A DNA stretch of 52,264 nucleotides from the IMG/VR virus record IMGVR_UViG_3300030419_005497, positions 1 to 52,264 of that record; one strand, 5' to 3'. Shown here piece after piece: positions 5,862 through 44,467 of the stretch. The notes beneath the pieces were generated by a model that was given only the letters and a program-made list of their open reading frames with translations, made no database searches and was not told the DNA's origin. The translations under genes and the position numbers were made by a program. How positions within the stretch are numbered: position 1 is the stretch's first letter; every line of letters begins with the position of its first letter. Source of the DNA: a virus.

Positions 5862-6075
5862 AAACCCATAGTGTTAAACGTGTGTTGTTCGGAGTTTTCT
5901 TCCGACTCTATTCTATGGGTTTAGTGGGATGCTAATTGGGGGGTCTAGCTATCCCACTTGTATCACTAAAGGAGGATCGCGGTCTACCTTGATGTGATAC
6001 TTTTTACGGTGTTCAATACAGGAATAACATAGTAGTCCCGTGCGCGGCTCTCCCACGCCTCTATTCCGTAAATTT
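5862..6075. ncRNA. Candidate structured RNA: consecutive long inverted repeats
   Basis: AAACCCATAG (5862-5871) pairs with CTATGGGTTT (5913-5922) and encloses TCGGA/TCCGA (5889-5893, 5901-5905). The next base begins AGTGGGAT (5923-5930), which pairs with ATCCCACT (5951-5958). GTATCAC (5960-5966) pairs with GTGATAC (5994-6000). A TTTACGG/CCGTAAA pairing follows. Perfect stems packed end to end are unlikely by chance in A+T-rich DNA. Strand and function are unknown; leftward transcription would match the neighbours. A DNA-level role such as an origin is an alternative. Confidence 0.45.
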
Positions 6076-6082
6076 CAAAGAT

Positions 6083-6114
6083 CAAAAAAACCTACAAATA
6101 TGTAAGATGTAGGT
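6083..6114 (-). terminator. Leftward rho-independent terminator
   Basis: On the minus strand ACCTACA pairs with TGTAGGT across an 11-base loop and is followed by a run of T residues (A residues 6084-6090 on the plus strand). It lies 10 bases past the stop of the gene at 6124 and ends the rIIA-rIIB transcription unit. Confidence 0.75.
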
Positions 6115-6123
6115 TGTGTAATG

Positions 6124-6354
6124 TCAAGCAATAAGTCTCTGTTTAACCTCGTAACACACCAACGAGTTGGGATCACGATAATTGGGATCACTGGGAGTGT
6201 TTTCTTCCATTACCTCATCGTGATAAAATTCCAACTGGTCTATTGCCTGTATCTCCTCGCTAGTTGCTGGCCCCTCTCTATAATCAAACGGATTCATATT
6301 GAGATTTAGCCTAGCAAGATTTAATACAATGCTTAATGCTTCTTTATTGTCCAT
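6124..6354 (-). CDS. Small acidic protein, NKEA-type N-terminus
   Basis: This 76-residue acidic protein starts MDNKEALSIVLNLARLNLNM, a paralogue by its opening of the proteins at 54-275 and 14929-15099. It overlaps the end of the rIIB-like gene by 11 bases and is the last gene before a terminator. Function is unknown. Confidence 0.72.
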   Translation of the reverse strand: MDNKEALSIVLNLARLNLNMNPFDYREGPATSEEIQAIDQLEFYHDEVMEENTPSDPNYRDPNSLVCYEVKQRLIA

Positions 6355-7210
6355 CGCTTAAAAGTCCTTTCACCAAGTCCTCTTTAGCTTGCTTGTAGCC
6401 TTCGTTGTAGCCTTGCTCTTTGCCAGAGTCATAGCCCTCATTGTAGTCGCTATCATCGTCCCAATCTGGATCTTCCTCTCCATCATAGTAATCGTCGGTA
6501 GCTTCAGTTTCGATAATGGTTTTAACCACTCCAACAACCTTATACTTCGCAGTACGCAACTTCTGGCAGTCGCAGTCATGCGGGACGCTAACAACGTCAG
6601 ACGGGTCGATTTGAACCGCCAATAAGTGACCTCCACCGGAGGCGTAACCATTGGCATACTCGTAGCTTCCAGCGTGGAAACCTTCACTACAACCGATGTT
6701 TGCATCGTCGCAGACGGTGTTTCGCGACATTTCGAGGGTTTGGCCGACAGAATTGTCGAATCTACCCGTGTGTCTGTCAGTGAAATTAGAATTCACTCCT
6801 TTATATGCAATAAAATCTCCTTCTGGAGTAATTGGCATATTCTTATGCTCTAAAAAGCGATAAAGCTCGCTTACAGCACGGCGGGAAGGGTTCTGCATCA
6901 GTTTGTCCAGAAAACGGATCAAACGCTTATACATTACCCCTTCAGACATACATCCGAGGATTTTATCGACCAGAACATTGTGAACTGGTTCGCCTTTGTA
7001 TAGAACTACTCCGCTTTCAACGGAAATGTTTCCATCGGTATAATCGACTACTGCTTTGCCTTGATCGAACATCTCTAGCAGACCATCGGTTTCTTCATTT
7101 AGCACTTTTTCCCTAATCTCTTTGAAAAGAGGGTGAGAATCAGTTGCTATATGAGTTTGAGAGTCCCAAAATACTGTGACTTTGGTATCTGTTATATTAT
7201 ATGCGTACAT
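6344..7210 (-). CDS. rIIB: rIIB-like protein
   Basis: The 288-residue protein follows an rIIA-like gene and carries the rIIB pattern: a region with LIRFLDKLMQNPSRRAVSEL, then FLEHKNMPITPEGDFIAYKGV, then a GFHAGSYEYANGYASGG segment near residue 180. The C-terminal tail is unusual: an acidic stretch rich in Asp and Tyr is followed by short repeats of the form YNEGY-x-GK/QA. In T4 the rII proteins act at the membrane in lysis timing and superinfection exclusion, although the precise mechanism is unsettled. Assignment rests on both sequence and adjacency. Confidence 0.85.
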   Translation of the reverse strand: MYAYNITDTKVTVFWDSQTHIATDSHPLFKEIREKVLNEETDGLLEMFDQGKAVVDYTDGNISVESGVVLYKGEPVHNVLVDKILGCMSEGVMYKRLIRFLDKLMQNPSRRAVSELYRFLEHKNMPITPEGDFIAYKGVNSNFTDRHTGRFDNSVGQTLEMSRNTVCDDANIGCSEGFHAGSYEYANGYASGGGHLLAVQIDPSDVVSVPHDCDCQKLRTAKYKVVGVVKTIIETEATDDYYDGEEDPDWDDDSDYNEGYDSGKEQGYNEGYKQAKEDLVKGLLSDGQ

Positions 7211-7281
7211 TTTCTTTTATCCCTTTGTATTACAACCTTTAATAAAGCTCAGAGTAAATTTCCCCTTAATGCCTTAATGCC

Positions 7282-7476
7282 TTAACTGTTTTTAAGATTA
7301 ATGTATTCTACGGTTTCAGTCAAGCACTTTTTTTCGTTATTCTGCCTAAAATAAATTTCGTCGTTCATCTCTCTTATAGTGTCCAAAACTTCAATTCCAT
7401 CTATGTTTTTTTCTACAATCAAAAAATATCCACCAATTTTTTGATAATAAATAAACTTTGCCCCGTTCCCATCCAT
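7282..7476 (-). CDS. Small hypothetical protein (64 aa)
   Basis: A strong AAAGGAGAT ribosome site precedes the ATG at 7476. The protein starts MDGNGAKFIYYQKIGGYFLI and looks like a compact beta-rich domain. It sits between the rIIA-like and rIIB-like genes. No family is recognised. Confidence 0.65.
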   Translation of the reverse strand: MDGNGAKFIYYQKIGGYFLIVEKNIDGIEVLDTIREMNDEIYFRQNNEKKCLTETVEYINLKNS

Positions 7477-7538
7477 TTTAATCTCCTTTTACATTGGTCT
7501 AATTGTTTGTGTTTTAAAATTGTTTAAATTTAAATTTA

Positions 7539-7578
7539 GGGAGGCTCCCCCGCCAACTCCTTAACCGGAGAGCCTCCC
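7539..7578. terminator. Strong hairpin between rIIA-like gene and next gene
   Basis: GGGAGGCTC (7539-7547) pairs perfectly with GAGCCTCCC (7570-7578), with an inner CTCC/GGAG pairing. On the leftward strand it is followed by TAAATTTAAATTTAAAC rather than a clean T run. It may be an attenuator or RNA-stabilising hairpin between rIIA and the downstream genes. Confidence 0.5.
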
Positions 7579-7585
7579 GTTCACT

Positions 7586-9787
7586 CTACTTACCGTTTAG
7601 ATAAGCGGAGAGATACTTTACATCCCCTACTTCTATCCCGTGATAATAGTCATTCGGGTTCATGAACTTAATCATCGGGTATTCTTCAATGAGTTCATCC
7701 ACCTGTTGCAAGTACGGGTTCTCTCCATCAGTATCTTGCTCAGGTTTCATAATTTTTTCAACCTCGTCCCTATCGATACCAAGACGAGCAAGGCCGCAAC
7801 GTAGGTTACTGTAGTGATCTCTAGGGCTACGATTCACTTTCGCAGAATTCGCGGCATCAACTAAATCCATGTATAAATGGTTTTTGTTTTTTAGCTGGCT
7901 TCGCAAAGTATTAATAATCTCATCTTTTGCAATAATGAAATTAGCATGGTAGCGAATTTTATCGCGGTTGCACCAATCTACTGCATCTTCATAGGCGTTG
8001 TTTTCTTCGGCCCATTTTGTCACGATTTGAAAGGTGACATCTTTCAATGCAGTCCAACCCTTACCAAGTTTCTTTATGGCTGAACTTTTAACAGCATAAA
8101 CTTCATCTTCGGAAGGAATGTCCTCTACGACTTCACGCATAGACCTCAGATGCTTGAAATAGACTTGAGGTGTTTCACCATCAATTTTATATCGATTCAT
8201 TTCAATGAAAATTCCATCAGTCTTTTCATTTAGATCGCAGTCAACTGGTTTCCAGTAGTCAGAATCATTACCCGTTTCTCCTGCTGAACCGTCTCTAACG
8301 AATTTGAATACTTTCAGATTGTTTTTTGGATTAGTGGGAGTATAGGAGCGAGTACCACTTGTGGTACGCTTCCCAAAGTCCTCTGGGAGAGAAACCTCCG
8401 ACAAATTTTTAATTTCACAATCAACTTTTGTTTTATCTAAAAACTCCTCCATGCCGTTGACCATCTTGCCCTCATTGTTGGCGTAATGCTCTGGGCAACT
8501 AATAAGGTGAACGTCATTCCCTGCTTCTGCCTCGCTCACGCAACGAGCGTAGAGTCCACGGGGGTTGGGAAGATCATTGTAGTAAAGAACAGTGTTTGGC
8601 TTCACCGCAATGTTGCGAGTTTCAACTCTACGGAACTTTTGAGTGTTTCGAGACTTCTCATAGCGATAAACCTTGAGGGGGCTACTACGCAAGTCCCAGC
8701 AAGAGATATTGGCAGAGTCGATTGCTTGACCATCATAGTCCACCTTTTCCACGATTCGGGAAAGGGTGTAGTATCCACTTCCGTAATCAAAAAGCTCGCC
8801 ATAGAGCAGTTTCGCTCCCCAATAGGACTTTTCGTTGGCAAATTTCTCATGAATTTGCCCAACGATTTCCTCCTTAATCTTGAGCATCTTTTTTACTATG
8901 TTCTTAATCGTAACATCAGTATATTCCAACATCTCGCGAGAGGCGGCGACACTCAATTCCCCGATTTCAAATTCAATATGCAGACATTCGCTGAACATAT
9001 TCTCTAATTCCTCTGGGACGTTTTTGAGGTTACTCTTTTCAATCCGGTAAGCAACATTGCCCATGATCGCAACTGGCTTGTTGTCGGAGTAATAAGTAGA
9101 AGTATTCGATGTGTTCCACTCCCATTCATCCCCAGAAAGAATTGGATCTTTTTGATCTTCAAAAAAAGTTGGTCGGCCCTTTATGACGGGCTTAACCTTG
9201 AAGTAGCGGAAAAACTCTTGAGCCTTTTCCTCAAAGACATTTATATCGTCTGGCTCAACGGGAATAATAACTTCGATCCCGTTTTCCTCATTGGTATCAC
9301 TAACGCCAAGTAAATCGCACTGACCTACCTTACTTGGATCAATAATTGCATTGTAGTGATAGCACTTGCCATCGACGTATGACTTAACCATGAAACTATC
9401 GGAATAGGCAAAGGCAGACTTACAACCGATTCCAAACATACCGATTGCATCATTAGTTCCACGCTTGGTTGACTCACCGTATTGAGTGTAGATATTCCGA
9501 ACCTCATCAGTGGTCAAACCCTTGCCATAATCGCGAACCGAAAACTCAGTCAGTAATCGAGTAGGAAGCCCAATTACAATAGGTCTTTCGGGCTGACCTG
9601 TTTGAACATGAGCATCTACCGCATTGCAAGCATACTCACGCTGAACTGCTAAAATCTTGTCCGAATACATTGAGTTTCGGAGAATATCCAGAAGGTGAGG
9701 CAATCCACTTTCAGAGATTGCGAACGAGACGGATTCCTGTATCCCTTTTTGGGATAAGGCGTTTTCATTAATTGGAGTTGGTTTCAT
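7586..9787 (-). CDS. rIIA: rIIA-like GHKL ATPase-fold protein
   Basis: The 733-residue length matches T4 rIIA (725). The N-terminal GHKL/Hsp90-type ATP-binding domain shows an N box EYACNAVDA (51-59), a G1 motif DYGKGL (86-91) and a G2 motif with GMFGIGCKSAF (116-126). The remainder is a long alpha/beta region without other known motifs. Together with the rIIB-like gene 376 bases downstream it forms the classic rII pair, implicated in membrane integrity and exclusion functions during infection. It has its own promoter (9821-9849) and a hairpin after its stop. Confidence 0.9.
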   Translation of the reverse strand: MKPTPINENALSQKGIQESVSFAISESGLPHLLDILRNSMYSDKILAVQREYACNAVDAHVQTGQPERPIVIGLPTRLLTEFSVRDYGKGLTTDEVRNIYTQYGESTKRGTNDAIGMFGIGCKSAFAYSDSFMVKSYVDGKCYHYNAIIDPSKVGQCDLLGVSDTNEENGIEVIIPVEPDDINVFEEKAQEFFRYFKVKPVIKGRPTFFEDQKDPILSGDEWEWNTSNTSTYYSDNKPVAIMGNVAYRIEKSNLKNVPEELENMFSECLHIEFEIGELSVAASREMLEYTDVTIKNIVKKMLKIKEEIVGQIHEKFANEKSYWGAKLLYGELFDYGSGYYTLSRIVEKVDYDGQAIDSANISCWDLRSSPLKVYRYEKSRNTQKFRRVETRNIAVKPNTVLYYNDLPNPRGLYARCVSEAEAGNDVHLISCPEHYANNEGKMVNGMEEFLDKTKVDCEIKNLSEVSLPEDFGKRTTSGTRSYTPTNPKNNLKVFKFVRDGSAGETGNDSDYWKPVDCDLNEKTDGIFIEMNRYKIDGETPQVYFKHLRSMREVVEDIPSEDEVYAVKSSAIKKLGKGWTALKDVTFQIVTKWAEENNAYEDAVDWCNRDKIRYHANFIIAKDEIINTLRSQLKNKNHLYMDLVDAANSAKVNRSPRDHYSNLRCGLARLGIDRDEVEKIMKPEQDTDGENPYLQQVDELIEEYPMIKFMNPNDYYHGIEVGDVKYLSAYLNGK

Positions 9788-22096: not shown

Positions 22097-22858
22097 CTAA
22101 ATGCCAAAATAGTTTTTCTCATGCTCCCACATTAACTTATTCATATCCTCAAAAGTCTTTATTTCGCTATCTTTTCGACACATATACTCGTATGCCTTTT
22201 TGTCGCTCGACCATTTTTCACCATCCCAAAACTCAAAACCTGTAAAATCTCTTTTGTATATGCAAGTTTCTTCGTATCCCGACATCATATACAGATAATC
22301 CATTCCATTTTCTTTCGCGTATTCTATCTCTTTTATGATGCTATATTTCCCAAGTGAAATTGATGGTTTGTGATAATCCCAACAAAATTGAAGTCCCGTC
22401 ATAGAGTTTGAACCAGAGTAAGTTCTCAATAAGGTGAACGCTCTCAAAACTCCTTCGTCGTAATACTGGAAAACTATCTTCTTATCCTTGTCTATTTCCT
22501 CCTTTAGCGATAAGGCTCCAAGGTCATCGCTAAAGCCTCTGTGCTTCATGTATCTATCGTACAAATCTTGAAGCTCATCAATGTTTGCGTTCTCCAGAGA
22601 CTTTATTTCGTGAGATACGCTTGGACATCGACGTAATATCCTATTTGTTTTTTTGTTATATTTAAGTTCTGAAACCTTGAGTCTTACTTGGCGAGCTTGA
22701 AACCATAATCTGGGAGTTTTTTTAGTCCACTCATCAACTGCCCAGCCATTTTTAAGGGCGTGATCTTCTTCGTTTTCTTCCACTTCTGCATATGCGTTAG
22801 CATAAATCAGACTCATGTCTGTCATCTTGCCAGTGATATGGTGAAAGAATATTTTCAT
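22097..22858 (-). CDS. Aminoacyl-tRNA-protein transferase-like (ATE/Bpt) acyltransferase
   Basis: The 253-residue protein carries the GNAT-type C-terminal layout of arginyl/leucyl-tRNA-protein transferases (ATE1/Bpt). RLKVSELKYNKKTNRILRR corresponds to their SRSQRRVLRRN element. YMKHRGFSDDL follows, then LGKYSIIKEIEYAKENGMDY-LYMMSGYEETCIYKRDF, matching the LGTYSI---IE-A---G--YLYLGY---GC-KM-YK region, and a terminal WDGEKW. These enzymes transfer Arg or Leu from tRNA to protein N-termini to mark them for degradation. The usual N-terminal Cys-containing domain is not evident, so the substrate may differ. Confidence 0.68.
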   Translation of the reverse strand: MKIFFHHITGKMTDMSLIYANAYAEVEENEEDHALKNGWAVDEWTKKTPRLWFQARQVRLKVSELKYNKKTNRILRRCPSVSHEIKSLENANIDELQDLYDRYMKHRGFSDDLGALSLKEEIDKDKKIVFQYYDEGVLRAFTLLRTYSGSNSMTGLQFCWDYHKPSISLGKYSIIKEIEYAKENGMDYLYMMSGYEETCIYKRDFTGFEFWDGEKWSSDKKAYEYMCRKDSEIKTFEDMNKLMWEHEKNYFGI

Positions 22859-41737: not shown

Positions 41738-42619
41738 TTAAACTACTGCGCGGCCCTTGTCCTGCATCCAATCAAGTTCTGATCTATCTATAGTGTTGTT
41801 CCTACGAATAGCCGCCTCGATTAGAATTGGCGGTCGATCTTTCTCTGCCATTTGGTGAAGGAGGGAGTTCATGTCCTTGGGAAAGCAAGTACCTCCAAAA
41901 CCGCCTTTGCCATCTGGACCCGGAACAGTAGTGTGGCTCTCTCCAACTCTTTTATCAAGAGTCACCAATTCTCTAAGTTCATTATAATTCACCCCGCAAA
42001 CCTGAGAAAACTTTTCTATTTCATTAAAAAAAGAAACCTTTGTTGCCAAAAAACAATTCCTTGTTATTTTAACTAATTCAGCCATAGAGCTAGAAGTGGA
42101 ATGAATGTTTGGGGCGTTCTTAATCTTTCCGTCTTCTTTCGCAAACTTAATGATATGCTTCATTATCTGAGGCAAATTGGAATCATCAGTATCAAAAGAA
42201 CCTATTATCCAGTCTTTCTGTTCGTAAAAATCGTTTTGCCAGTTTTGCTCAGTTAAGAACTCTGGCATAAAATTCACGCCCATTTCCCCACAAAAACCAA
42301 CCGGAACCGTAGACCTAACTACTATATAGGGGCCATCATCGAGACCCTTCAGGTCTGAAATGACTTTTTCTACTATTTCAGTGTGGCACTCCCCGTTATG
42401 TTTCATGGGAGTAGGTACGCAAACAAAAACCACGTTGCAATATTTTAAAGATTCAAAATCAAAACCTTTGGGAGAACATTTGTCTGGATCAACATCATAG
42501 ATCACCACCTCCGTTCTTTTGGATTGGAGTAATGCCGTCGCTTTTCCGACGTATCCATTTCCAACGATTCCAATTCTTACATTCTTTATTTGAGATGGGG
42601 ATATATATTGTCTTTGCAT
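41738..42619 (-). CDS. UDP-glucose/GDP-mannose dehydrogenase-like protein
   Basis: The N-terminal Rossmann domain has GIVGNGYVGKATAL, and the central domain has AELVKITRNCFLATKVSFFN with the catalytic Lys. The Cys of GGFGGTCFPKDMNSL is the catalytic nucleophile. This assigns it to the UDP-sugar dehydrogenase family (nucleotide-sugar to uronic acid). At 293 residues it lacks the C-terminal UDP-binding domain of the usual 430-residue enzymes, so activity or substrate may differ. It ends near a terminator and is close to the tRNA gene. Confidence 0.85.
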   Translation of the reverse strand: MQRQYISPSQIKNVRIGIVGNGYVGKATALLQSKRTEVVIYDVDPDKCSPKGFDFESLKYCNVVFVCVPTPMKHNGECHTEIVEKVISDLKGLDDGPYIVVRSTVPVGFCGEMGVNFMPEFLTEQNWQNDFYEQKDWIIGSFDTDDSNLPQIMKHIIKFAKEDGKIKNAPNIHSTSSSMAELVKITRNCFLATKVSFFNEIEKFSQVCGVNYNELRELVTLDKRVGESHTTVPGPDGKGGFGGTCFPKDMNSLLHQMAEKDRPPILIEAAIRRNNTIDRSELDWMQDKGRAVV

Positions 42620-42666: not shown

Positions 42667-42942
42667 CTACTGTGGAAGATCAGGAACTTCAGGGGTTTCC
42701 TTTGGTATCTGTCCTTCTTCAGAGGTCAAAATAGCATCTTGTAATTGGATGACTGAATGCACCAAATACCCAGTAAAAAGAAAATTAAATGCAAGCAGCA
42801 TGATCACAATCCTTTGCCGAAGTAGTCCTCCGTCTTGGTTGCAAGTTTCTCCATGTGCTTCGCACTCCTTCTTTTTAGGGGCTGCTTTTTTCGTTGGGGC
42901 CTTTTTAGGGGCTGCTTTCTTTGCTGTTTTCTTAGCTGGCAT
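42667..42942 (-). CDS. Membrane protein with histone-H1-like Lys/Ala/Pro N-terminus (91 aa)
   Basis: From the ATG at 42942 the protein starts MPAKKTAKKAAPKKAPTKKA, with repeated AKKAAPKK/APTKKAAPKK units. ECEAHGETC follows, then one hydrophobic helix (IVIMLLAFNFLFTGYLVHSV) and an acidic tail. The Lys/Ala/Pro tract resembles histone H1-like tails and may bind DNA or be membrane-proximal. A TTGACT box lies 33 bases upstream. Function is unknown. Confidence 0.65.
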   Translation of the reverse strand: MPAKKTAKKAAPKKAPTKKAAPKKKECEAHGETCNQDGGLLRQRIVIMLLAFNFLFTGYLVHSVIQLQDAILTSEEGQIPKETPEVPDLPQ

Positions 42943-42989
42943 AGATTTTTTATCTTTAAGGTAATAAATACTAAAAGTCAACCGGATTT

Positions 42990-43253
42990 TTATTTAAAAG
43001 TAGAATTTTCGAAAATAAAGTCCGCTAAATCTCTAACGGTTATTATATCGTTAAAATCCATCATGTAATTGTTTATTTTTATGGAGTGAATTTCTTCCAT
43101 CGCCATCATCATATCTACGGTATCTAAGGAATCTATCTCTAATTGAGAAACGGGGGTATCAAGCGTCACTTCCAAGTCTCCAACTGCCGTGGCATCACTT
43201 ACTTCTTCAAGGACTATTTTATAAATTTTTTCTTTCTTCTCCTTGTCTTCCAT
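42990..43253 (-). CDS. acpP: Acyl carrier protein
   Basis: The 87-residue acidic protein (from the ATG at 43253) has the ACP core EIDSLDTVDMMMAMEEIHSI with Ser42 in DSLD, the site of the 4'-phosphopantetheine, followed by ITVRDLADFIFE. Length and charge fit ACP. It carries acyl intermediates of fatty acid or polyketide-like synthesis. A holo-ACP synthase is encoded two genes upstream in the same operon, so the ACP is probably activated by a phage enzyme. No acyl-transfer or ketosynthase gene is visible in the window. Confidence 0.9.
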   Translation of the reverse strand: MEDKEKKEKIYKIVLEEVSDATAVGDLEVTLDTPVSQLEIDSLDTVDMMMAMEEIHSIKINNYMMDFNDIITVRDLADFIFENSTFK

Positions 43254-43254
43254 T

Positions 43255-43482
43255 TTATATCTCCAATTCAAACTTTAAGCATAGTCCTTTATAAAGCTCC
43301 CTGTGTTCATCTTTTATGTTTTCGCCGCCAATCTTTAATATGTGGTGGATAAAGCCAAGTTTGTAAAACGGGAGAAACTCTATGTCAACCTTTATTTGGC
43401 TTTTAGATAAGCTTACGAGCAAAAACATTAAAACGTCTAGCTCTTCTTCAGATAAAGAATTTATTATATGTCTATAAATCAC
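43255..43482 (-). CDS. Hypothetical protein between AcpS and ACP (75 aa)
   Basis: The GTG start at 43482 lies within the end of acpS, and the stop is one base before the ACP ATG. The product starts MIYRHIINSLSEEELDVLMF and continues as a helical domain. No family is recognised. Its position between the two ACP-pathway genes suggests a role with the carrier protein, which is inference. Confidence 0.6.
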   Translation of the reverse strand: MIYRHIINSLSEEELDVLMFLLVSLSKSQIKVDIEFLPFYKLGFIHHILKIGGENIKDEHRELYKGLCLKFELEI

Positions 43483-43852
43483 CTAAGTTTTTATTCTCTA
43501 TAATGCAAACAGCCGTAGCGTACCCCCCAGAATGACTTATACTTAAAGAGGAGGTAAGTCCTTTCGGTAAGTTATTGTTGGGAAAATAAATTACAGGCTT
43601 TCCTTTTTCGTCCCTCATGATCTCCATTTCCGTAAAAGGAATCATCTCTTTGACGTTGCCTGTTAACGCTTTATGCGCTGCTTCTTTGGCTGCCCATCTA
43701 CCCGCTATAGAGTGAGAGCTATACCCTTTATTAAGGCAGTACTCTTTTTCTCTTTGGGTTAAAAACTTATCTAAAAAACGCTCACCAAAAGAAGACAATA
43801 AGGATTCTATTCTTGGAATATCTTGAATGTCAGTACCAATGCCAACTATCAT
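43472..43852 (-). CDS. acpS: Holo-ACP synthase (AcpS-type phosphopantetheinyl transferase)
   Basis: The 126-residue protein matches AcpS along its length. MIVGIGTDIQDIPRIESLLS has the catalytic Asp8, FLDKFLTQREKEYCL follows, IAGRWAAKEAAHKALTG holds Glu57, and HSGGYATAVCI is near the end. AcpS transfers the phosphopantetheine arm of CoA onto ACP Ser. It overlaps the preceding gene by 4 bases and the following one by 11. A phage copy of AcpS is uncommon. Confidence 0.92.
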   Translation of the reverse strand: MIVGIGTDIQDIPRIESLLSSFGERFLDKFLTQREKEYCLNKGYSSHSIAGRWAAKEAAHKALTGNVKEMIPFTEMEIMRDEKGKPVIYFPNNNLPKGLTSSLSISHSGGYATAVCIIENKNLGDL

Positions 43853-44124
43853 ATTTTTAGAATTTCTTTCTCGTCCATTTTAACGGAGATATTCTCTGAG
43901 CCATAAACGGAAAGAATTAAAGCCTTATCCTCATTGGATAGCTTTCCATCGATGGCGGAAACAAAATTTTTAAATTCTTGAGCTTTTTGAGATTTATGGC
44001 ATTTACAGCAAGATAAAAAAGCCTTCCTTAGCAAATCAGCGCTTTTAAAAAACGGGATTTCCTTCAAGACTTCGTTAGACAATGCAAAATCCATAAAATT
44101 TCTGTAATCAATCTCCGTTGGCAT
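43849..44124 (-). CDS. Hypothetical protein with CCKCH segment (91 aa)
   Basis: A strong AGGGAGG ribosome site precedes the ATG at 44124. The protein starts MPTEIDYRNFMDFALSNEVL and has a SCCKCHKSQKAQEF segment, which could bind one metal, then an acidic helical region. It is coupled to AcpS by overlap. No family is recognised. Confidence 0.68.
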   Translation of the reverse strand: MPTEIDYRNFMDFALSNEVLKEIPFFKSADLLRKAFLSCCKCHKSQKAQEFKNFVSAIDGKLSNEDKALILSVYGSENISVKMDEKEILKI

Positions 44125-44467
44125 AAAAAAACCTCCCTATTAATAAATACACTAAAAGGGAAACTAAATTAACTAACGGAAAAAAATAAATGAGGTCAAA
44201 CACTAAGCAAAAAACAAGACTTAACCACACGGACAAACAAGTCTGACAGGTGACGAGGGCCACTACAAAAGAATGTTCTTTATATTTAACTCTTAGAAAA
44301 GAAAGATAGTCTAAAATGTGGTCAGGATCTTCTTTGTCGTAAATATGAACTCCAAACCAAGTATGAAGATTAAAGTATCTGACATAATATTCAAAAGCGT
44401 CACTTTCAAACCAAATCACCATAATCAGAACTATCCAACCACAGCAAAGTGAAAAACTCTCAATCAT
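44108..44467 (-). CDS. Membrane protein, DUF1360-like (119 aa)
   Basis: Three hydrophobic helices are visible, with a conserved-looking TCQTCLSVWLSLV between the second and third. The phage family with such a C-x-x-C-x-S-x-W motif is of unknown function (DUF1360-type resemblance). It overlaps its neighbours. Confidence 0.62.
   Translation of the reverse strand: MIESFSLCCGWIVLIMVIWFESDAFEYYVRYFNLHTWFGVHIYDKEDPDHILDYLSFLRVKYKEHSFVVALVTCQTCLSVWLSLVFCLVFDLIYFFPLVNLVSLLVYLLIGRFFYANGD

What the first reader, a model, noticed from the sequence alone, without database searches (positions are those of the whole stretch)
42990..43852. A phage acyl carrier protein with its own phosphopantetheinyl transferase
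AcpS (43472-43852), an unknown 75-residue protein, and ACP (42990-43253, Ser42 in DSLD) are adjacent and overlapping. This is a self-sufficient carrier-protein activation unit. No fatty-acid synthase gene is visible, so the ACP may serve an unusual acylation, such as modification of a toxin, lipid, sugar or DNA, or it may divert host fatty-acid synthesis. The linking protein at 43255 is a candidate partner.
Basis: partly seen in the sequence, partly recalled or inferred. Interest (0 to 1): 0.85.

Follow-up and report, generated by a model that had tools for sequence, protein, structure and literature searches.

The report
Phage acyl carrier protein with activator
A marine virus of bacteria carries a three-gene unit that makes an acyl carrier protein, the enzyme that arms it with its sulfur-bearing arm, and a small unknown companion protein; such pairs are rare in phages but not unheard of, and what the armed carrier is used for is still open.

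Summary
On the minus strand, 43852-42990, an AcpS-type phosphopantetheinyl transferase (PF01648 and TIGR00516, both over cut-off), a 75-residue protein and an acyl carrier protein (PF00550 over cut-off, Ser42) lie in one tightly packed row. Seven phage records share AcpS-75aa-ACP at the same place; three of them are near-copies. An eighth (G053) keeps AcpS with two ACPs but lacks the 75aa gene. All carriers keep Asp-Ser-Leu, AcpS keeps its active-site residues, and dN/dS in the one informative pair is 0.06-0.22. The 75aa gene occurs only with the cassette; the other neighbours also occur in relatives that lack it. No ketosynthase, acyl-activating ligase or tested acyltransferase family was found in the cassette records, and no ligase in a 158-kb relative with AcpS. 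Best reading: a working, FAS-type holo-ACP loaded by host enzymes, with the 75aa protein as adaptor; the acceptor is unknown. Phage ACPs are well known, and ACP plus a PPTase was reported in Prochlorococcus phages P-HM1/P-HM2 in 2010, but there with an unrelated PPTase 22 kb away (P-HM1). So this is a new variant of a known kind. Other viral contigs show carrier-plus-AcpS in an amino-sugar acylation cluster and an NRPS-like loading module.

The parts
43472..43852 (-). AcpS-type holo-ACP synthase (4'-phosphopantetheinyl transferase), 126 aa
   Evidence: PF01648 and TIGR00516 over cut-off; D8, E57, K61 conserved in all five aligned phage copies; dN/dS 0.06 in the G022/G031 pair
43255..43482 (-). 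75-aa all-helical protein of unknown family, GTG start; candidate ACP adaptor
   Evidence: no Pfam or PHROG match over cut-off; model pLDDT 83, five helices, no significant PDB match; found only in ACP+ records among those held; dN/dS 0.22
42990..43253 (-). acyl carrier protein, 87 aa, pI 4.1, phosphopantetheine site Ser42 (DSLDTVDMMMAMEE)
   Evidence: PF00550 over cut-off; Ser conserved in all 8 aligned copies; ACP fold
43849..44124 (-). upstream neighbour, 91 aa, CCKC motif; clade background, not part of the cassette
   Evidence: homologues also in records without ACP, e.g. L047, and weaker in L037, whose record has only a lone ACP elsewhere
44108..44467 (-). upstream neighbour, 119-aa membrane protein; conserved throughout the clade
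   Evidence: 39 hits in ACP-less loci
42667..42945 (-). downstream neighbour, Lys/Ala-rich protein with one probable membrane segment; background
   Evidence: 15 hits in ACP-less loci
41738..42619 (-). downstream neighbour, UDP-glucose/GDP-mannose dehydrogenase family; background
   Evidence: PF00984 E=4.7e-22; also in ACP-less relatives

Best explanation
The unit makes a working (holo) fatty-acid-type acyl carrier protein inside the infected cell. AcpS moves the phosphopantetheine arm from host coenzyme A onto Ser42 of the phage ACP (inferred from family and intact active-site residues; not assayed). Because the phage seems to bring no ketosynthase or acyl-activating ligase, the holo-ACP is most likely loaded by host enzymes, that is, fed malonyl or acyl groups by the host type II fatty-acid synthase, and so draws part of the host acyl pool to a phage-chosen use (inferred). 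The 75aa protein is most likely an adaptor that binds the phage ACP and directs it (inferred from strict co-occurrence and position). The final acceptor is not known.
For: Same gene order in seven records, with AcpS in all four nrdA-relative hits lying beside an ACP. Ser in 8/8 ACPs, AcpS active-site residues in 5/5. dN/dS for G022/G031: AcpS 0.06, 75aa 0.22, ACP 0.09. The window ACP's best NCBIfam scores go to general acyl-carrier-protein models, above the siderophore-type one, and DltC is not among its matches; the helix-II stretch DSLDTV is of the type in solved FAS ACPs. No PF00109 in the ACP+ records, no PF00501 in the window's cassette type or in the 158-kb relative G062. The 75aa family: 10 hits in ACP+ loci, 0 in ACP- loci. 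Prochlorococcus phages P-HM1/P-HM2/MED4-213 pair a FAS-like ACP with an unrelated PPTase, which suggests that such phages need the carrier in its holo form.
Against: All cassette records of the window's type are fragments of 20-70 kb, so a ligase or acyltransferase may lie elsewhere. The ACP scores stay below NCBIfam equivalog cut-offs. G053 lacks the 75aa gene but keeps AcpS and two ACPs, so the adaptor is not essential everywhere. No binding, loading or expression data. The 75aa-ACP interaction is inferred from gene neighbourhood alone.
Confidence: 0.5

Rival explanations
1. The ACP is the acyl donor for acylation of a sugar in a phage-made glycan, as in the V. cholerae O1 system where RfbL is thought to load a hydroxy acid onto CoA or carrier RfbK; the phage decorates host surface polysaccharide or its own particle.
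For: A different phage contig, G054 (T4-type terminase), has an RmlA-like nucleotidyltransferase, 4,6-dehydratase-like gene, DegT aminotransferase, hexapeptide acyltransferase, ACP, AcpS, AMP-ligase, SDR and glycosyltransferase close together on one strand. Cassette phages G031 and G053 carry large glycan clusters; the window has a UDP-glucose dehydrogenase family gene, phosphomannomutase and a glycosyltransferase-like gene. RfbL/RfbK precedent: PMC12208996.
Against: No AMP-ligase or hexapeptide acyltransferase in any record of the window's cassette type. The dehydrogenase and the glycosyltransferase also occur in relatives without the cassette, so they do not track the ACP. The G054 ACP has a different helix-II sequence (DSLALAELAVRIE).
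Confidence: 0.25
2. The ACP works as a competitor or decoy for host proteins that bind ACP (for example SpoT, MukBEF or Fab enzymes) and so alters host stress response, chromosome organisation or lipid synthesis during infection.
For: ACP is known to bind such host proteins (SpoT: PMC3340395; MukBEF: cited in PMC11705849). No acyl-using phage enzyme found by the families tested.
Against: A plain decoy would not obviously need its own AcpS, yet AcpS and the Ser are under strong constraint; a holo-specific decoy is not excluded. No host target is indicated by the sequence.
Confidence: 0.15
3. Plain metabolic support: the phage tops up the host ACP pool to keep phospholipid synthesis going while host genes are shut off.
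For: FAS-type ACP; prophages with fabG-acpP-fabF are described (PMC8224337).
Against: Does not explain the dedicated 75aa protein or an AcpS of the phage's own, since host AcpS should serve a pool ACP. A 245-aa ACP with long tails in G022/G031 is unlike a pool ACP.
Confidence: 0.1

Closest known systems
ACP and 4'-phosphopantetheinyl transferase of Prochlorococcus T4-like phages P-HM1, P-HM2 (also MED4-213 by similarity), reported by Sullivan et al. 2010 (PMC3037559)
   Same: Marine T4-type phages that encode both a carrier protein with a FAS-like DSLDMVELVMFLEE stretch and a PPTase; no fatty-acid synthase gene in the 50 kb of P-HM1 annotation read
   Different: Their PPTase is only a partial PF01648 match (34 bits, residues 73-125 of 152) with no detectable similarity to the window AcpS; in P-HM1 it lies 22 kb from the ACP
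Phage acyl carrier proteins of PHROG 5934 and 4154, and those reported in e.g. Vi01-like PhiSH19, Erythrobacter R6L, Erwinia jumbo phages, Alteromonas R22Y
   Same: Stand-alone PP-binding protein in a phage, function unclear (PMC3220722, PMC5463345, PMC7760394, PMC11705849)
   Different: No PPTase is reported with the ACP in the passages read; phage AcpS had no PHROG match at E<0.01
Bacterial AcpS (holo-ACP synthase)
   Same: Full-length family match, conserved active-site residues
   Different: At most 48% identity to the 80 nearest bacterial AcpS kept; no ACP of the phage type found beside AcpS in those 80 loci
Vibrio cholerae O1 RfbK/RfbL carrier-ligase pair of O-antigen acylation
   Same: Carrier protein used outside fatty-acid synthesis; close in gene content to phage contig G054
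   Different: The window cassette has no ligase or sugar acyltransferase

Membership tests
AcpS / holo-ACP synthase (PF01648, TIGR00516) | full-length profile match over curated cut-off | tested here: met
   65.7 bits vs 25; 89.1 vs 59.8
AcpS / holo-ACP synthase (PF01648, TIGR00516) | conserved Asp8, Glu57, Lys61 of the active site | tested here: met
   invariant in five phage copies; that these are the catalytic residues is from general knowledge of AcpS
AcpS / holo-ACP synthase (PF01648, TIGR00516) | transfers phosphopantetheine to ACP Ser | not testable with these tools
   needs an enzyme assay
Acyl carrier protein (PF00550) | profile over cut-off with Ser in D-S-L | tested here: met
   32.8 bits vs 20.8; Ser in 8/8
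Acyl carrier protein (PF00550) | helical ACP fold with Ser at the start of helix II | tested here: met
   helix 42-55 starts at Ser42; the 50 Foldseek rows listed are carrier proteins or complexes holding one, best E 0.008, no hit at E<0.001
Type II fatty-acid or polyketide synthase module | ketosynthase gene | tested here: not met
   no PF00109 in 11 records; window and cassette relatives are fragments
Carrier-ligase acylation system (RfbK/RfbL, DltA/DltC, NRPS loading) | AMP-forming ligase (PF00501) with the carrier | tested here: not met
   none in the window's cassette type nor in G062; present in G054 and G055 only
ACP + PPTase pair of the P-HM1 kind | homologous PPTase | tested here: not met
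   BLASTP E=0.38, no real alignment; both touch PF01648, P-HM1's only in part, so a remote kinship of the superfamily remains

The most novel reading that the evidence does not exclude
A phage-specific acyl-transfer module in which AcpS arms a dedicated ACP and the 75aa protein, a new family, acts as adaptor or as a minimal acyl-ACP receiver, steering host-made acyl groups to a phage target (glycan, virion or host protein).
Probability: 0.3. Interest if true: 0.75.

Novelty: new variant of a known kind. Interest (0 to 1): 0.5.

Why it matters
Phage ACPs have been listed for years as of unclear function. A minimal three-gene cassette that brings its own activating enzyme and one dedicated small protein gives a concrete system to test. 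Carrier-plus-PPTase pairs turn up in phages or viral contigs with two very different PPTase types and in four gene settings (this cassette, P-HM1, the G054 sugar cluster, the G055 NRPS-like module), which suggests that phages gain from a working carrier of their own.

Tried and rejected
GenBank 'phage' records with AcpS as precedents: rejected. Two of the unverified wastewater contigs were opened and have acpS beside alanine racemase, a chromosomal arrangement; MaAM05 carries smc-scpAB and secDF and looks bacterial. The CCKC protein, the membrane protein, the Lys/Ala-rich protein and UDPGDH as cassette parts: rejected, they also occur without the cassette. Fold match for the 75aa protein: nothing significant, weak saposin-like rows at E>5. 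75aa in bacterial genomes: none by the pattern scan. Toxin acylation by HlyC-type enzyme: no hit, but the control also stayed silent, so this is no proof. PlsC-type acyltransferase: none. First viral scan with AcpS alone found nothing; the first ACP alignment was too divergent to scan. Two separate origins of the cassette AcpS: the free tree splits them, but one clade is not rejected (p-AU 0.318). Literature searches for a phage PPTase found only PMC3037559, by way of a side search.

Full report
What is there. The window is a 52,264-base virus record of IMG/VR, a fragment. Its gene content is that of a large T4-type phage (RIIA, clamp loader, ribonucleotide reductase). At 43852-42990 on the minus strand lie AcpS (126 aa), a 75-aa protein and an ACP (87 aa). 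AcpS passes Pfam and NCBIfam cut-offs, the ACP passes Pfam's. AcpS and the 75aa gene overlap by 11 nt; the 75aa gene and the ACP are 1 nt apart; the 75aa gene starts with GTG in the window and ATG in relatives.

Is it conserved? A scan with the window's NrdA gave 80 related viral loci. Of 50 of their records searched whole, four hold AcpS and five hold an ACP; every AcpS has an ACP close by. Further scans with AcpS, 75aa and ACP queries added more. The order AcpS-75aa-ACP, downstream of a 91-aa CCKC gene and upstream of the dehydrogenase, is found in the window, G001, G002, G051 (three near-copies), G052 (L099), G022 and G031. G053 keeps AcpS and has two ACPs, another gene between them and no 75aa gene; G062 (158 kb) has AcpS and a weak ACP-like gene (found by our own ACP profile at E=5e-5, not by Pfam) about 6.6 kb apart. 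In G022/G031 the ACP domain sits in a 245-aa protein with long charged tails; P-HM1's ACP also has a C-terminal tail.

Which genes belong to it? Profiles run over the ORFs of the held loci show that the 75aa family occurs only in ACP+ loci (10 hits against 0), whereas the CCKC, membrane and Lys/Ala-rich proteins also occur without the cassette. The hit counts include the same record fetched more than once. So the cassette is AcpS-75aa-ACP, and the 75aa protein is the only neighbour that tracks it.

Is it functional? The Ser is kept in 8 of 8 ACPs and Asp8/Glu57/Lys61 in 5 of 5 AcpS. For G022 against G031, dN/dS is 0.06 (AcpS), 0.22 (75aa) and 0.09 (ACP); the other pairs are too close or too far to tell much. 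The ACP model has carrier proteins or carrier-bearing complexes in the 50 rows listed, though no hit is below E=0.001. The 75aa model (pLDDT 83, six sequences) is all helical and matches nothing.

Where did it come from? The nearest bacterial AcpS are at most 48% identical. AcpS of G022/G031/G053 branches beside Verrucomicrobiota with high support; the window's copy is on a long branch whose place is unsure; a single origin is not rejected. A verrucomicrobial donor or host is therefore a lead, not a result.

What could use the ACP? No ketosynthase, PlsC-type acyltransferase, hexapeptide acyltransferase or AMP-ligase was found in the records of the window's cassette type, and no ligase in G062. 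These are family searches of fragments. I scanned only about 30 window proteins with Pfam, not all. Inference: the carrier is loaded by host enzymes. The glycan genes around it are common in the clade and do not track the cassette, so glycan acylation is possible but not singled out.

Other viral settings of a carrier with its own AcpS. G054, a phage contig with a T4-type terminase, has ACP and AcpS inside a group of sugar genes with an AMP-ligase, a DegT aminotransferase and a hexapeptide acyltransferase, which reads as amino-sugar acylation. G055 (316 kb) and two short relatives have an adenylation-domain protein, a short carrier (weak match) and AcpS close together, next to a gene that by eye resembles a 2OG-oxygenase but has no Pfam match.

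What is known. Phage ACPs are in PHROGs and in several papers, with function unclear. ACP together with a PPTase was reported for P-HM1 and P-HM2 in 2010; I opened P-HM1 and found the two genes 22 kb apart, with a PPTase that has no detectable similarity to the window AcpS. Among 50,697 GenBank phage records, window AcpS found only nine places at E<0.01; the two unverified contigs opened are chromosomal, and MaAM05 looks bacterial. So the pair as such is not new; the operon of an AcpS-type enzyme, a new small protein and an ACP is a new variant.

Limits.

Noticed in passing
L106 (G055, 316-kb viral contig) 6009-8402, and L107, L108: Adenylation-domain protein (PF00501 E=1e-46), a 72-aa carrier-like protein and AcpS close together: an NRPS-like loading module in a very large viral contig.
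   Followed up: partly
L097 / L127-L128 (G054): Phage contig with a probable amino-sugar acylation cluster: RmlA-like, dehydratase-like, DegT aminotransferase, hexapeptide acyltransferase, ACP, AcpS, AMP-ligase, SDR, glycosyltransferase.
   Followed up: partly
L127:7888-9051 (G054) and L225:12745-13908 (G062): Tubulin/FtsZ-family protein (PF00091, tested in G054; the G062 one is similar by eye) next to a probable portal gene in T4-type phages.
   Followed up: no
window 22097-22858: Match to the C-terminal domain of arginine-tRNA-protein transferase (PF04377 E=2.4e-9) in a phage that also carries tRNA-Arg and tRNA-Met genes.
   Followed up: no
L037 / L092 (G020), between nrdA and nrdB: A lone ACP-like gene with a small 80-aa gene inserted between the ribonucleotide reductase genes; no AcpS found in this 89-kb record.
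   Followed up: partly
L126:4130-11645 (G053): NeuB-type synthase, TPP enzyme, dehydroquinate-synthase-like enzyme and DegT aminotransferase near each other: unusual sugar or cyclitol pathway in a phage contig.
   Followed up: no
L230:10752-11888 (G062): SET-domain protein (PF00856 E=1.7e-8) in a 158-kb phage contig.
   Followed up: no
GenBank MW495066.1 (Microcystis phage MaAM05), 115861-146235: Record holds smc, scpA, scpB, secD/F and glyS and looks like bacterial chromosome rather than phage.
   Followed up: partly
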